DNA from: Betaproteobacteria bacterium
GTDB lineage: Bacteria; Pseudomonadota; Gammaproteobacteria; Burkholderiales; SG8-39
Length of the DNA: 52,878 nt
NCBI GenBank assembly: GCA_005881575.1
Contig: VBCA01000054.1
Location: 1 to 52,878, forward strand
Reading direction: 5' to 3'
Part shown: positions 4,264-9,779 of the stretch, piece after piece
How the letters are laid out: every line of letters begins with the position of its first letter
How positions within the stretch are numbered: position 1 is the first letter of the stretch
Program-made: the position numbers and the translations under genes
Notes under the pieces: model-generated
The model's input: only the letters and a program-made list of their open reading frames with translations
The model's database searches: none
What the model was told of the DNA's origin: nothing

Positions 4264-4378
4264 AGACACTTCAACCTGGTTCATCGGCATCAGCCGCTCG
4301 ACCACCGTGTCAACCGACTACCGTACCGCGCGTTTGCGAATCAAGGGAGGGGGGTCGCCGGGGGGTCGCCACGTGATC

Positions 4379-6082
4379 ATGAGAAAACGGATGGTTGCGA
4401 CACGCGAGCCACGGGTTGCAAGCGTCGCCCAGGAAACAGCGGGTGCGGAGGCGGACGCCGGCGCAGCGCTCGCCAAACTGGGACTTGCGGCCACTGGCGC
4501 GCTTGCCCTTGAAGCCTGCGGTGGTGATAGCGGCTCCTCTGGCGGCGGCACACCGCCGCCCGTATTGTCCAGCACACAGGCCTCGCGGTTCCTGTCGCAG
4601 TCCGCCATCGGCTACAGCCATGCCGATATCGCGAGCGTCTCCACCTCAGGCATCGATGCCTGGCTAACCGCCCAGTTCGCGATGGCGCGACCGCAGAAGT
4701 TCTGGGACTTTCTGGTCACCAACGGCTACGCCGCCTCGACCAACGTCAACACGCTCAATGGCTTCGACCCGATGATCTGGTCGCAGCTCATGGGCGGCAG
4801 CGACATCTTGCGCCAGCGCGTGGGATTGGCGCTGCTCGACCAGTGGGTGGTGAGCATCGACGGGTTCGCCAGCAGCTGGCGGCCGTTCGTCATGGCAGCG
4901 TACCTCGACGTGCTGTGGGAGAGTGCCTTTAGCAATTATCGAGATCTCATGGAGGGCGTATCCACCAGCGTCGCCATGGGCCTGTACTTGACCTTCCTCG
5001 GCAGCGTCAAGGCCAATCCGGCGACCGGGTCGATACCGGATGAAAACTACGCGCGCGAACTTATGCAACTGTTCACCATCGGCCTGTATCAACTCAATAT
5101 GGACGGCACGCTGGTCATGTCCGGCGGCAATCCCGTGCCCACCTACACACAGACCGACGTCTCGCAGGGCGCGCGGGTGTGGACCGGCTACACCTTCGCC
5201 AATACCGACAACACGACGCCGGACCGGATGCAGCTGCCGATGGCGATCAACGCCGCGCAGCATGAAACCGGCGCGACCAGCTTCCTCGGCATCAGCATTC
5301 CTGCCGGCACGAGCGGCGCGACCGCACGCGCCACGACACTCGACGGTCTGTTCAATCATCCCAACGTGCCGCCATTCGTCAGCAAGCAGCTGATCCAGCA
5401 CCTGGTAACCAGCAATCCCTCGCCTGCCTACGTCGGCCGCGTCGCGGCGGTATTCGCCAACAACGGCAGCGGCGTGCGCGGCGATATGAAATCCGTGATC
5501 CGCGCGATCCTGACCGACAGCGAGGCCCGTGACGACACCCAGGTGACGAGCTCGAGCTTCGGCAAGCTGCGCGAACCGGTGACGCGGCTGGTCCAGTGGG
5601 CGCGGGCGTTCAACGTCACGTCGCCCACCAATTTGTGGCCGTTCGGCAATGTCTCCTCGAGCGCCAACCGAATCGGCGAGAGCCCGGGCCACGCGCCGAG
5701 CGTCTTCAACTGGTTCCGGCCCGGGTACACACCCCCGGGCACGACGATCGCGAGCGACGGCCGCGTCGCGCCCGAGTTCCAGATCACCAATGAGCCGTCG
5801 ATGATCGCCTATATCAACTACCTGCAGTCGGTGATCGTCAATGGCGCGGGTGAGGCCAAGGCAGACTACTCCTCGCTGACCGCGATCGGCTCGGACAGCC
5901 AGGCGCTGCTCAACGAGCTCAATCTGGTGCTGGCCGCCGGTCAGATCAGCGCGACGACGATCGCGCAGATGAAGACTGCACTCGACACCATTTCGGCGAC
6001 CACCAGCGCAGGCCTGAACAATCGCATCTATGCGGCGCTGGTTCTGGTCATGGCCTCCCCCGAGTACCTGGTGCTGCGATGA
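4379..6082 (+). CDS. DUF1800 family secreted protein
   Basis: The 567-residue product has the DUF1800 layout: an N-terminal exported segment, then ASRFLSQSAIGYSHADI, the block NYARELMQLFTIGLYQLN, a later KQLIQHLVTSNPSP and APSVFNWFRPGY. The start chosen is the ATG at 4379, which leaves an N-terminus leading to LALEACGGDSG. That resembles a lipobox with a Ser/Gly-rich linker, so it may be a lipoprotein; upstream in-frame codons from 4307 look non-coding. The stop overlaps an ATG of the next gene and the two are plainly co-transcribed. DUF1800 and DUF1501 genes usually occur as a pair; the role is unknown, though export and a surface function are likely. Confidence 0.9.
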   Translation: MRKRMVATREPRVASVAQETAGAEADAGAALAKLGLAATGALALEACGGDSGSSGGGTPPPVLSSTQASRFLSQSAIGYSHADIASVSTSGIDAWLTAQFAMARPQKFWDFLVTNGYAASTNVNTLNGFDPMIWSQLMGGSDILRQRVGLALLDQWVVSIDGFASSWRPFVMAAYLDVLWESAFSNYRDLMEGVSTSVAMGLYLTFLGSVKANPATGSIPDENYARELMQLFTIGLYQLNMDGTLVMSGGNPVPTYTQTDVSQGARVWTGYTFANTDNTTPDRMQLPMAINAAQHETGATSFLGISIPAGTSGATARATTLDGLFNHPNVPPFVSKQLIQHLVTSNPSPAYVGRVAAVFANNGSGVRGDMKSVIRAILTDSEARDDTQVTSSSFGKLREPVTRLVQWARAFNVTSPTNLWPFGNVSSSANRIGESPGHAPSVFNWFRPGYTPPGTTIASDGRVAPEFQITNEPSMIAYINYLQSVIVNGAGEAKADYSSLTAIGSDSQALLNELNLVLAAGQISATTIAQMKTALDTISATTSAGLNNRIYAALVLVMASPEYLVLR

Positions 6083-6093
6083 GGAGAACGCGT

Positions 6094-7485
6094 ATGCCCT
6101 CGGACCTATCCCGACGTGCGTTTCTCAAGCGCGCCTCGGCGCTCTCCCTGGCCGGCGCCGCCACGCCGTTCGTCATGAACCTCGCTGCGATGGGCGAAGC
6201 CGCCGCGGCTACGGCGACGGACTACAAGGCGCTGGTCTGCGTATTCCTCTATGGCGGCAACGACTACGCCAACACGCTCGTGCCCTATGACAACACGCAA
6301 TACGGCATCTATCAGGCCCAGCGTCCAGGGCTCGCCTATGCACAGTCGGCGCTGACCGCCACCGCGCTCACGCCCTCGATGCCGCTGCCCAATGGCGCCC
6401 AGTACGCGCTCGCGCCGGAACTCGCCAAGCTGCTGCCGCTGTTCAATGCCGGCAATCTGGCGGTGCTGCTGAACGCCGGCACGCTGGTGCAGCCGACAAC
6501 CAAGGCCCAGTATCAGGCGAAGAGCGTGAGCCTGCCCCCGAAGCTGCTGTCGCACAACGACCAACAGAGCTACTGGCAGGCCTCATCGCCCGAGGGCGCC
6601 GCCTCCGGCTGGGGCGGCCGCATCGGCGACCTGTTGCAGTCGGGCAACGGCACGGCCACACTCACCTGCATCAACGTAACCGGCAATGCGGTGTTCCTCA
6701 CCGGACAGGCGGCCGTGCAGTATTCGGTCACGCCCGCCGGACCCATCGCGCTCAATGCGCGCACCAGCCTGCAGGGATCGACAGCAGCGGCCACCCTGCT
6801 GCGGTCGCTGATCAGTGACGGCGGCACGCATGAATTCGAAGCGGCGCTTGGCGGCATCGGGTCGCGTGCACTCGACCTGTACAGCCAGGTGTCGGCTGCT
6901 CTGGGCCAGGCACCGGTGACCACGACCGCGTTCCCAACGGCCGCCGACCCGCAGAGTTCGCTGGGCGCGCAGCTGCAACTGGTGGCCAAGCTGATCTCGG
7001 TTGGCAGCGAGCTGGGTGCGAAGCGCCAAGTGTTCTTCGTTTCCACCAGCCGTTACGATACGCACGCTGGGCTGGTGACCTTGCATCCGACACTGCTCAC
7101 CAACCTCGCTGATGCGCTGCGCGCCTTCTATGACACGACGGTGGAGCTCGGTGTGGCTCCGCAGGTAACCACCTTCACCGGCTCCGACTTCGGGCGTGCA
7201 CTGACGGCCAACAACGATGGCACCGACCACGGCTGGGGCAGCATGCACTTCGCGCTCGGCGGCGCCGTCAGGGGCGGCCGGTATTACGGTATCAATCCGA
7301 CGCTGGCTAACGGCGGCCCCGATGACATCGGCCAGGGCCGGCTCATCCCGACGCTGTCGGTCGATCAGTATGCGGCGACGCTCGCCAGCTGGTTCGGCGT
7401 CTCGAATTCCGATCTGGCGACGGTTGTCCCCAACATCGGCAACTATGCCGGCAGTGCGCTGGGCACGAATGTCGGCTTTGTCTAG
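6094..7485 (+). CDS. DUF1501 family protein with twin-arginine signal
   Basis: The product is 463 residues. It opens with MPSDLSRRAFLKRASAL, a Tat signal (SRRAFLK) followed by a hydrophobic stretch ending AAMGEAAAA. The mature part starts with FLYGGNDYANTLVPYD and later has RYDTHAGLVTLHPTLLTNLA and FTGSDFGRALTANNDGTDHG, the DUF1501 hallmarks related to the alkaline phosphatase/sulfatase fold. The ATG at 6094 is preferred over the overlapping ATG at 6079 because GAGGAG sits 7 bases before it. It is coupled to the DUF1800 gene. Tat export implies folding, and perhaps metal loading, before secretion. Substrate unknown. Confidence 0.9.
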   Translation: MPSDLSRRAFLKRASALSLAGAATPFVMNLAAMGEAAAATATDYKALVCVFLYGGNDYANTLVPYDNTQYGIYQAQRPGLAYAQSALTATALTPSMPLPNGAQYALAPELAKLLPLFNAGNLAVLLNAGTLVQPTTKAQYQAKSVSLPPKLLSHNDQQSYWQASSPEGAASGWGGRIGDLLQSGNGTATLTCINVTGNAVFLTGQAAVQYSVTPAGPIALNARTSLQGSTAAATLLRSLISDGGTHEFEAALGGIGSRALDLYSQVSAALGQAPVTTTAFPTAADPQSSLGAQLQLVAKLISVGSELGAKRQVFFVSTSRYDTHAGLVTLHPTLLTNLADALRAFYDTTVELGVAPQVTTFTGSDFGRALTANNDGTDHGWGSMHFALGGAVRGGRYYGINPTLANGGPDDIGQGRLIPTLSVDQYAATLASWFGVSNSDLATVVPNIGNYAGSALGTNVGFV

Positions 7486-7741: not shown

Positions 7742-7818
7742 TGGCGCGCCCGGCAGGAATTGAACCCACGACCCCCTGGTTCGTAGCCAGGTACTCTATC
7801 CAACTGAGCTACGGGCGC
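7742..7818 (-). tRNA. tRNA-Arg (anticodon ACG)
   Basis: 77 nt on the minus strand. The acceptor stem GCGCCCG pairs with CGGGCGC, and CCA is encoded at 7744-7742. The D-arm has AGCTCAGTTGGATAGAGT, the anticodon loop is CTACGAA (ACG) between CCTGG and CCAGG, and the T-arm has GGTTCAATTCC. All canonical parts are present. Confidence 0.96.
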
Positions 7819-7960: not shown

Positions 7961-8734
7961 ATGTCCCGTTCCCGATGCCGGTACTGCGATCAGGACAATC
8001 CGGCGGACTCGAAGTTCTGCAGCTCCTGCGGCGGAGCATTGCACCTCCCACCGCACCTTGCATCGTGCCCGCGCTGCGGGGCGGTGAACCCGGCCACAGC
8101 GACCGTCTGTTGCTGGTGCAGGAACCAGATGCCGCGGGGAAAGTCTTTGCCGCGCCCGCGCTCTCGAGTGATCGTCGGCACAGCGGCTCTCGCGGCAGTT
8201 GCCGTCGTCGGCTACTACACCTACCGCCAGCTCTCGTACGCTGACGCGCCTCAAGCGCCAGCCGCAAGCAGCGATTCGAGCGCGCGCCGCGCTCCTGCCG
8301 ACGCCGTCTTTCTCGACGGGAATGCGGCAGCCGCCGATCCCAAATCAGCCAGCGCCGACGAAGGCGCCGCGCTCACCGTCCCCGCGACCTCGCCGTTGGG
8401 GACCCCGCCTGCCGAACCAACGCGTGCCGCGGCAAGCCCGGCGCGCGCGGCCCGTCAGCCGGTAAAATCAGAGGAAGCGAAAGCTGGCGAGCCGGGGTTG
8501 TTTCGCTCGGAAGCGTGCACCGAGGCGAACGCAGCCCTTGGATTGTGTGCAATGAAATCCGCTCAGAAGAAAGACCCGGAAACGGCTGCCGCCGTCGAAG
8601 CGGCGATCAAACGTCCCCCAACGACCGGCGCCGGCAGTTCGGGCGGGCAAGAGCCGCCTCGGCCCCAGACGTGCACTGAAGCAGTCGCGGCCCTGGGGCT
8701 TTGCACGTCAAGTCCTACACAGAGGAGGGAATGA
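7961..8734 (+). CDS. Double zinc-ribbon, single-pass membrane protein with two CTEAxAALGLC motifs
   Basis: The 257-residue protein starts with two zinc ribbons: C6-x2-C9 with C20-x2-C23, and C36-x2-C39 with C50-x2-C53. One membrane helix follows at about 69-86 (VIVGTAALAAVAVVGYY), then a long Ala/Pro/Ser-rich low-complexity linker. The C-terminal part holds two copies of an 11-residue Cys-to-Cys motif: CTEANAALGLC at 186-196 and CTEAVAALGLC at 238-248. The ribbons are probably cytoplasmic and the linker periplasmic, but topology is inferred. The stop lies one base before the start of the TAXI binding-protein gene, which carries a related motif at its own C-terminus. Function not known. Confidence 0.8.
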   Translation: MSRSRCRYCDQDNPADSKFCSSCGGALHLPPHLASCPRCGAVNPATATVCCWCRNQMPRGKSLPRPRSRVIVGTAALAAVAVVGYYTYRQLSYADAPQAPAASSDSSARRAPADAVFLDGNAAAADPKSASADEGAALTVPATSPLGTPPAEPTRAAASPARAARQPVKSEEAKAGEPGLFRSEACTEANAALGLCAMKSAQKKDPETAAAVEAAIKRPPTTGAGSSGGQEPPRPQTCTEAVAALGLCTSSPTQRRE

Positions 8735-8735
8735 A

Positions 8736-9779
8736 ATGACCAGGAAACTCATCCGTACGCTCGTGGCGGCGGCCCTATGTCTTCACGGCGGGGCGGCCGT
8801 CGCAGCCGCCGACTACAAGATCGTCACCGCCAATGAAAAGGGCACTTATTTTGCGATCGGCGCCGATCTCGCCAAATTCGTGGCTCCCGATGCCACGATC
8901 AACCTGGAGGTCTTGCCGACGGCGGGTTCGGCCGCAAACATCAAGCATCTTCGCTACGACCTCGGCGTGAAATTCGCGATCGTCCAGGCCGATGTCTACC
9001 AGGCTTTCATCGATCGGGCGGCTCAAGGCAGCAAGGACGCAAGCATCATCATACGTCCGCTCCGCGTGATCCTGCCGCTTTACAACACCGAGATTCACTA
9101 CATCGTCAGGGCCGACTCTTCGATGAATTATCTGCACGATATCAAGGATGCCAAGATCAACGGCGGCGAGTTGGGCAGCGGCGCCGCGCTCATCACGCAT
9201 ACCCTGTACCGAATGATGTTCAAGGGGCCCATACCGGAGGCGCAAGATAGCTTCCTTCCCAACCAGGAGGCGCTCGTCAAGCTGATCGGCGACAAGAGCG
9301 TGGATGTCGTAGTCGTCGCCGCGGGGCAGCCGGCTCCGCTGATCGTCAACATGAAGCCCGAGGCGCAGAAGTTCATCAAGCTGCTGAAGTTCGATCCCAA
9401 CCACCCCTCGAGCAAGCTTCCGCTCACGGTCTATTCCTACTCCACGGTCCTTGCGAGCAGCTACCCAAACCTGCTGAAGGAAGACTTCACGACGGTCTCG
9501 GTGGGAGCCTTCCTGGTCACTTACGACTACAACCTCCAGTTCACCGTGGGGCACCTAATCCGGTTTGCGCGATCCTTGTGCCAGAATTTTCCCGTCCTGC
9601 AGGCGCAGGGCCATCCCAAATGGAAAGAAGTCCACTTGAGCTTGCCCGCTCTCGGTCCGGGCTGGATCTATTACCCGCCCACGACGAGAGAGATCCGCGC
9701 CTGCATCGCCGCCAAGGCGCCCGCAAAGCCCGCGAGAAAATGCTCGGCGGAGGAGCGCATACTGGGATTCTGCAGCTGA
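8736..9779 (+). CDS. TAXI family TRAP-type solute-binding protein
   Basis: A 347-residue periplasmic protein with a signal peptide (MTRKLIRTLVAAALCLHGG ... AVAA). The mature part begins YKIVTANEKGTYFAIGADLA and continues with LPTAGSAANIKHLRYDLGVK and VQADVYQAF, typical of the TAXI (TRAP-associated extracytoplasmic immunogenic) family that binds glutamate-like or other organic acids. GGAGGGA precedes the ATG. No TRAP membrane subunits are nearby, so it is an orphan here. The C-terminus is odd: after KPARK it ends CSAEERILGFCS, echoing the paired-Cys motifs of the gene before it. The two genes probably form one operon and act together. Confidence 0.88.
   Translation: MTRKLIRTLVAAALCLHGGAAVAAADYKIVTANEKGTYFAIGADLAKFVAPDATINLEVLPTAGSAANIKHLRYDLGVKFAIVQADVYQAFIDRAAQGSKDASIIIRPLRVILPLYNTEIHYIVRADSSMNYLHDIKDAKINGGELGSGAALITHTLYRMMFKGPIPEAQDSFLPNQEALVKLIGDKSVDVVVVAAGQPAPLIVNMKPEAQKFIKLLKFDPNHPSSKLPLTVYSYSTVLASSYPNLLKEDFTTVSVGAFLVTYDYNLQFTVGHLIRFARSLCQNFPVLQAQGHPKWKEVHLSLPALGPGWIYYPPTTREIRACIAAKAPAKPARKCSAEERILGFCS

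What the first reader, a model, noticed from the sequence alone, without database searches (positions are those of the whole stretch)
7961..9779. Shared C-(x9)-C 'CTEAxAALGLC' motif in a zinc-ribbon membrane protein and the adjacent TAXI binding protein
The zinc-ribbon protein has CTEANAALGLC and CTEAVAALGLC; the binding protein ends with CSAEERILGFC. All three are 11 residues from Cys to Cys with Leu-Gly-(Leu/Phe)-Cys at the end. Finding the same odd motif at the C-terminal side of two unrelated, adjacent proteins points to a shared function: a disulfide-closed tag, a docking peptide or a recognition site for a common partner. I know of no description of this pair.
Basis: partly seen in the sequence, partly recalled or inferred. 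Interest (0 to 1): 0.72.

Follow-up and report, generated by a model that had tools for sequence, protein, structure and literature searches.

The report
Matching cysteine clasps on paired proteins
Two neighbouring bacterial genes, one for a predicted membrane protein with a zinc-binding head and one for a predicted exported small-molecule-binding protein, end in the same short cysteine-to-cysteine motif in dozens of species, and the motif likely works as a clasp that would hold the binding protein to its membrane partner.

Summary
The zinc-ribbon protein (7961-8734) carries C-x9-C at 8516-8548 and 8672-8704; the TAXI binding protein (8736-9779) at 9741-9773. A model built from such motifs finds only these three places in the 3.8 Mb genome (E about 1e-3; next 2.5). 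In 80 related loci, 78 of 78 TAXI proteins with an intact end carry the tail, and 72 of 75 with enough upstream sequence have a same-strand neighbour ending in the same kind of motif. The neighbour is otherwise poorly conserved (27% identity against 63% in the motif) and its head is swappable: zinc ribbons in 62 of 72, an AAA ATPase once. Natural single-chain versions (mostly STAND NTPase, membrane helix, TAXI domain) show no tail: 0 of 22; nor do 19 generic TAXI proteins. I infer a docking clasp between an exported binding protein and a single-pass membrane partner, probably for signalling. Disulfides and contact are untested; a tandem AlphaFold2 run gave no evidence of docking; the fusions are one clade; a few genomes keep one motif without the other. 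Eight paper searches found no description.

The parts
7961..8734 (+). Partner gene: 257-aa zinc-ribbon protein with one predicted membrane helix and two C-x9-C motifs
   Evidence: ORF; Pfam DZR/Zn_Ribbon_1; homologues
7976..8119 (+). Double zinc ribbon (residues 6-53), predicted cytoplasmic
   Evidence: Pfam DZR residues 6-53; the ribbons of a relative (L063) modelled with block pLDDT 87-89
8168..8224 (+). Predicted membrane helix (about residues 70-88), Arg-rich before it (N-in)
   Evidence: sequence; hydropathy and charge bias over 72 partners; helix in the model of a relative
8225..8515 (+). Ala/Pro-rich linker, predicted periplasmic and disordered
   Evidence: linker 48-267 aa, median 114.5, over 72 partners; pLDDT 32-40 in most of the relative's linker
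8516..8548 (+). C-x9-C motif 1, CTEANAALGLC (residues 186-196)
8672..8704 (+). C-x9-C motif 2, CTEAVAALGLC (residues 238-248)
8723..8728 (+). AGGAGG, likely ribosome-binding site of the TAXI gene inside the partner's last codons; would explain the conserved TQRRE end
   Evidence: sequence; TQRRE end conserved
8736..9779 (+). TAXI-type solute-binding protein gene, 347 aa, starts 1 nt after the partner's stop codon
8736..8807 (+). Predicted Sec signal peptide (about residues 1-24)
   Evidence: sequence read by eye; low-confidence helix 3-16 in the model; no signal-peptide program was run
9741..9773 (+). C-x9-C tail CSAEERILGFC (residues 336-346), predicted mini-helix 338-342 beyond the TAXI fold
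   Evidence: helix in the model; alignments to solved TAXI chains end at model residue 328 or before

Best explanation
The partner protein and the TAXI binding protein end in matching C-x9-C motifs that likely fold into small disulfide-closed helices and would dock on each other in the periplasm, clasping a predicted exported ligand-binding protein to a predicted single-pass membrane protein. In the 80 loci the TAXI version is mostly C[ST]xxE[RK][IV]LG[LF]C and the partner version mostly C[TP]xA[VM]AALGLC (shown); a helix-start residue after the first Cys and L-G before the end suggest a capped helix (inferred). The linker of about 50-270 residues would let the clasp reach the binding protein from the membrane (inferred). 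Because the part on the other side of the membrane helix is swappable (zinc ribbons, an AAA ATPase, others) and natural one-piece versions mostly put a STAND NTPase there, the assembly most likely works as a split transmembrane receptor: ligand capture by TAXI outside would change the state of the cytoplasmic module (inferred). In the window family the partner has two clasps and could hold two TAXI molecules (inferred).
For: Motif confined to the pair in its own genome, and in 16 of 17 genomes reached through loci the two best motif hits are these two neighbouring genes, with no convincing third protein. 78 of 78 intact TAXI tails and 72 of 75 upstream partners have it; 9 of 9 further TAXI proteins and 8 of 8 assessable partners too, the ninth being masked upstream. 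A distant subfamily (G240, 37% identity; grouped with G534 and G476) keeps the TAXI tail, and G534 and G476 have a motif-bearing partner. The motif is a conserved island: 63% identity in nine inner positions against 27% for ribbon-to-motif sequence in 62 zinc-ribbon partners. No other neighbour gene or transporter is conserved. Compartments agree: Sec-like start on TAXI; net charge higher before than after the helix in 51 of 72 partners, equal in 9. Natural fusions of membrane module and TAXI show no tail: 0 of 16 listed proteins and 0 of 6 locus copies, while split copies in four of the same genomes keep it (G512, G461, G508, G362). Both tails are modelled as short helices. Weak co-variation beyond TAXI core distance: partial r 0.153, p 0.008, n 70.
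Against: No contact or disulfide is shown. The tandem AlphaFold2 run gave low tail confidence (61-68) and no sign of docking. The two motifs can part: G010 keeps a partner motif but its TAXI lost the tail; G119 keeps the TAXI tail but its partner has none; TAXI tails without an intact motif on a neighbour occur in L119, G489, G240 and L085. All 22 fusions form one clade, so tail absence there is one event, perhaps never gained; two of them (P0243, P0250) end early. The permutation test does not fully remove shared ancestry. 12 of 72 partners have the opposite charge bias. Signalling is inferred from domain swaps only.
Confidence: 0.55

Rival explanations
1. Both tails are recognition tags for the same third component (a periplasmic oxidoreductase, an envelope protein, peptidoglycan or a distant transporter), so the two proteins are brought together without touching each other.
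For: The two motifs look alike rather than complementary, and each can survive without the other (G010, G119, L119, G489, G240).
Against: No third gene is conserved next to the pair, and no convincing third motif-bearing protein was found in the genomes searched, although a receptor need not carry the motif and the model misses diverged tails. Fusions of the two partners do without the tail.
Confidence: 0.2
2. The pair is a membrane-tethered uptake aid: the partner anchors TAXI near the inner membrane to feed an unlinked permease, with no signal passed inside.
For: TAXI proteins are described mainly as transporter subunits (PMC5812351, passages); a TAXI proposed to work with a non-TRAP carrier, with natural fusions, is published (PMC12344293, passages).
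Against: No permease is conserved beside the pair (the rest of the genomes was not searched for one). The other end of the partner carries zinc ribbons or an ATPase domain, and most fusions a STAND NTPase, which a plain anchor would not need.
Confidence: 0.2
3. The C-x9-C tails are independent stabilising caps on exported proteins and their likeness is convergence.
For: A helix start, a Gly helix stop and two Cys are simple features; the tails are predicted as isolated mini-helices.
Against: In the genomes searched, convincing hits lie in two adjacent genes and not in other exported proteins; 0 of 19 generic TAXI proteins have it.
Confidence: 0.1

Closest known systems
TAXI-type TRAP solute-binding proteins (8s4j/9ibo, 9ibp, 1us4, 8u79, 4ddd)
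   Different: The C-terminal linker and C-x9-C tail (model residues 329-347) lie beyond the alignments to those chains; no TRAP membrane gene conserved beside it; under the NCBIfam TAXI cut-off (77.6 against 84.35 bits).
TAXI-GltS system of Bordetella pertussis (PMC12344293, passages read)
   Same: A TAXI protein without a TRAP permease gene, translationally coupled to another membrane protein, with natural fusions elsewhere.
   Different: There the partner is a glutamate symporter and the TAXI a three-domain predicted lipoprotein; the words zinc and disulfide occur 0 times in its main text. Here the partner is predicted single-pass, with a zinc ribbon or other head and a matching Cys tail.
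Binding-protein-triggered transmembrane receptors (general class described in PMC9602780, passages read; LuxP-LuxQ from memory)
   Same: A periplasmic binding protein would pass ligand status to a membrane protein with a cytoplasmic output module.
   Different: No kinase, cyclase or chemoreceptor domain was found in the proteins scanned; coupling would be by matched C-terminal mini-motifs rather than a folded sensor domain.
Twin CX9C (CHCH) proteins of mitochondria (from memory; search listing only)
   Same: C-x9-C repeats predicted helical, in an oxidising compartment; the window's partner has two copies.
   Different: In most of the 80 loci each of two chains has one motif; in the 106 twin relatives 14 to 41 residues lie between the copies, median 40; L-G-L before the last Cys would end the helix.

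Membership tests
TAXI solute-binding protein | NMT1_3/TAXI sequence profile | tested here: met
   PF16868 E 4.2e-24, 86.1 bits against a cut-off of 27; NCBIfam TIGR02122 77.6 bits, just under its cut-off of 84.35
TAXI solute-binding protein | Two-lobed TAXI fold | tested here: met
TAXI-TRAP transporter system | Fused DctQM membrane component encoded beside the SBP | tested here: not met
   No conserved neighbour other than the partner in 80 loci with flanks up to 6 kb, many of them shorter; a permease elsewhere in the genome was not searched
Twin CX9C / CHCH | Two C-x9-C helices in one chain cross-linked as a hairpin | tested here: inconclusive
   Two copies in 106 of 120 close relatives, but the partners of most other loci show one; helices predicted, no hairpin tested
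Binding-protein-coupled transmembrane receptor | Exported SBP physically coupled to a membrane protein with a cytoplasmic output domain | tested here: inconclusive
   Gene pairing and natural fusions support coupling; contact and output untested
Double zinc ribbon (DZR) protein | Two CxxC-CxxC ribbons | tested here: met
   DZR 29.6 bits against 27.3, residues 6-53

The most novel reading that the evidence does not exclude
A bacterial split CX9C clasp: one helix from each of two different proteins forms a two-helix hairpin sealed by disulfides, a plug-in connector by which one type of binding protein is wired through the membrane to interchangeable cytoplasmic heads (zinc ribbon, AAA ATPase, or STAND NTPase when fused).
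Probability: 0.22. Interest if true: 0.86.

Novelty: new variant of a known kind. Interest (0 to 1): 0.73.

Why it matters
Binding proteins with no transporter gene beside them are known as orphans and are numerous in some betaproteobacteria (PMC5812351, passages on the related TctC/Bug proteins). This pair gives one set of orphan TAXI proteins a concrete candidate partner and an 11-residue handle that can be tested with peptides. If the tails dock, it is a short, heterotypic, disulfide-closed connector in bacteria and suggests a modular receptor in which outside sensing is wired to zinc-ribbon or ATPase modules inside. It also offers a simple signature (C-x6-LG[LF]C at the end) for finding further split receptors.

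Tried and rejected
Chance: rejected. Widespread C-terminal tag of many exported proteins: rejected for the genomes searched, with a limit: the motif model misses diverged tails (no hit at E 1 in G489, G534 or G476, whose TAXI tails are plain by eye, nor for the partner of G010). Weak single hits that were looked at: G251 contig 7, G263 contig 17, and three in genomes (G461 contig 2, G366 contigs 69 and 214), all in frames that are not C-terminal motifs of a recognisable partner (one further entry printed the wrong place, and the remaining hits near E 1 were not read); G160 lies in a frame overlapping a 901-aa ORF. Operon with a TRAP or other permease: none conserved (that script favours the longest frame and can mistake antisense frames for genes). 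The conserved TQRRE end of the partner as a functional peptide: better explained as the ribosome-binding site of the next gene. Defence-system link: only weak hits to short ATPase stretches. Structure of a complex: no multimer tool, so I used a natural in-frame gene pair read through its stop codon; it gave no docking signal, and a first alignment for it was dropped because partner tails were pulled onto TAXI tails. A first control on generic TAXI loci used the wrong strand for 10 of 19 and was redone. A test of co-variation gave only a weak signal; its figure for whole-partner identity (26%) used open frames that run past the true gene starts, so I recomputed it on trimmed zinc-ribbon partners (27%).

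Full report
What is there. The window is the whole of contig C4 of a 3.81 Mb draft genome in 86 contigs, 96.6% complete. Two genes follow each other on the + strand: 7961-8734 (257 aa) and 8736-9779 (347 aa), the second starting one base after the first one's stop. The first has a double zinc ribbon at residues 6-53, a hydrophobic stretch at about 70-88 after an Arg-rich run, an Ala/Pro-rich linker, and C-x9-C motifs at residues 186-196 and 238-248. The second has a signal-peptide-like start, a TAXI/NMT1_3 domain and C-x9-C at residues 336-346. The end of the first protein, TQRRE, is conserved, probably because its codons hold an AGGAGG ribosome-binding site for the second gene (8723-8728; read; inference).

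More than chance. An 11-position model of the motif, built from 13 family peptides with the window's own among them, finds these three places in the whole genome with E about 1e-3; the next is E 2.5. A plain codon pattern for A-[LF]-G-[LF]-C has 13 hits (24 for the reversed control); only the two in the zinc-ribbon gene have the first Cys in place. In 250 genomes of the order the model matches at E 0.05 in three: this genome (3 hits), G113 (2 hits, the same gene pair) and G160 (1 hit in a frame overlapping a 901-aa ORF).

Conservation. Of the 120 best TAXI homologues listed (of 3074) 119 have the tail at the end; the exception stops short of it. Of 120 zinc-ribbon homologues listed (of 199) 106 have two C-x6-LG-x-C copies, 11 one, 3 none; those 3 are short (182-191 aa) and stop before the motif region. 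The best 80 of 390 loci from species genomes were fetched with a TAXI alignment: 78 have an intact TAXI end and all 78 carry the tail; 75 have at least 700 bases upstream and 72 of these have an upstream ORF on the same strand ending in the motif (looked for within 400 bases); 71 of the 72 have a hydrophobic stretch of mean hydropathy 1.2 or more. The three misses are L085 (a zinc-ribbon partner whose last Cys is Ser, in a genome with a second, intact pair, L082), L099 (partner with motif 1.6 kb upstream) and L119 (none found).

What is constant and what is not. Ten of the 72 partners show no zinc ribbon by pattern. L092 begins with an AAA ATPase (Pfam AAA_22 E 2.6e-21) that matches the PEP-CTERM-associated ATPase model TIGR03015 over its whole length at 274 bits, under its cut-off of 324.5; its likeness to ExeA is from memory. 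L093, L101 and L129 share a stretch after the membrane helix; L093 and L129 were scanned and have no Pfam match. Kept are the hydrophobic helix, the linker (48-267 residues, median 114.5; no other Cys in 68 of 72) and the motif. In the 62 zinc-ribbon partners mean pairwise identity from ribbon to motif is 27%, of the nine inner motif positions 63% (one search gave 26% and 61% on 70 untrimmed partners). No other neighbour gene is conserved. The gap is 5 bases or less in 28 of 72.

Genome-wide. With a broader motif model (39 peptides), 20 genomes were searched: 17 through loci, plus G119, G010 and G240. In 16 of the 17 the two best hits are the two genes of the pair, 1.1-2.6 kb apart; L119's genome has the TAXI tail as its best hit and no partner. 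One genome (G253) has two pairs, one of them the degraded L085. Apart from these and the TAXI tails of G119 and G240, the only hit at E 0.15 or better is in G251 (E 0.114), in a frame without recognisable features. The model misses diverged tails, so a third protein with a diverged motif is not excluded.

Distant relatives. G240's TAXI (37% identity) and those of G476 and G534, which group with it, end in C-x9-C too; G534 and G476 have an upstream partner with C-x9-C, zinc-ribbon-like by eye. G444 has a second, diverged pair without a zinc ribbon but with both motifs. Exceptions: G010's TAXI lacks the tail while its zinc-ribbon partner ends in a C-x9-C; G119's TAXI keeps it while its zinc-ribbon partner has none in the three frames read; G489 and G240 have the TAXI tail but no motif-bearing neighbour seen. 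Nineteen generic TAXI proteins from the order have none.

Natural fusions. Six locus proteins (L195-L200; L197 is cut at the front) and sixteen database proteins (P0241-P0256) carry the TAXI domain at the end of a longer chain; 15 of the sixteen have a hydrophobic stretch of 1.3 or more before it, P0255 does not, and twelve of the sixteen have a STAND NTPase domain (PF20703) (also L195 and L196; rescanned for P0242 and P0245). None of the sixteen has C-x9-C in the last 80 residues, although P0243 is cut before the end and P0250 may be, and none of the six locus copies has it. Four genomes carry both a fusion and a split pair with tails (G512, G461, G508, G362). On a quick tree of 131 TAXI domains the 22 fusions are one clade (local support 100), the generic ones another; the state of the tail, with four cut rows left out, needs two changes, and the base is unresolved. 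The contrast is thus one evolutionary event, not many.

Interpretation. Shown: matched motifs, adjacency, confinement to the pair within the model's sensitivity, swappable heads, tail-free fusions. Inferred: disulfide closure, docking of tail on tail, periplasmic location of the partner tail (charge bias for it in 51 of 72, equal in 9, against in 12), signalling. I put the docking clasp at 0.55 because either motif can survive alone in a few genomes and because no contact has been seen; a functional link of the two genes in some form I hold to be much likelier (about 0.85).

Literature. Eight searches turned up no paper on a zinc-ribbon/TAXI pair or on a STAND-TAXI fusion; searches returned none, and the rest were judged by titles and abstract starts. 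Passages of PMC5812351, PMC12344293 and PMC9602780 were read. They describe TAXI proteins as TRAP subunits, orphan binding proteins, a TAXI-GltS system with fusions, and binding proteins that stimulate transmembrane receptors. Most subscription papers and preprints are not in that library.

Noticed in passing
L195-L200; P0241-P0256: Single-chain proteins, mostly with a STAND NTPase front, a membrane helix and a TAXI domain at the end: a one-piece receptor-like architecture that turned up in no paper searched.
   Followed up: partly
L092:4319-5977: A PEP-CTERM-type AAA ATPase with a membrane helix and the C-x9-C tail takes the place of the zinc-ribbon partner.
   Followed up: partly
L093:4656-5972, L101:329-1468, L129:4758-5951: Polaromonas partners share a conserved stretch after the membrane helix with two further Cys (L093 and L129 were scanned: no Pfam match).
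   Followed up: no
L085 and L082 (Pseudorhodoferax aquiterrae): Two pairs in one genome; in one the partner has lost a ribbon cysteine and the last motif Cys, as if decaying, while its TAXI tail is intact.
   Followed up: partly
L124: A contig labelled Acidobacteria carries a TAXI gene that groups with L052 at zero branch length; binning error or transfer.
   Followed up: no
window 4307-7485: DUF1800 and DUF1501 gene pair directly upstream.
   Followed up: no
window 7742-7818 (-): tRNA-Arg(acg) between the DUF1501 gene and the pair.
   Followed up: no
window 8723-8734: A likely ribosome-binding site of the TAXI gene lies in the partner's last codons, which would fix its TQRRE end across homologues.
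   Followed up: yes
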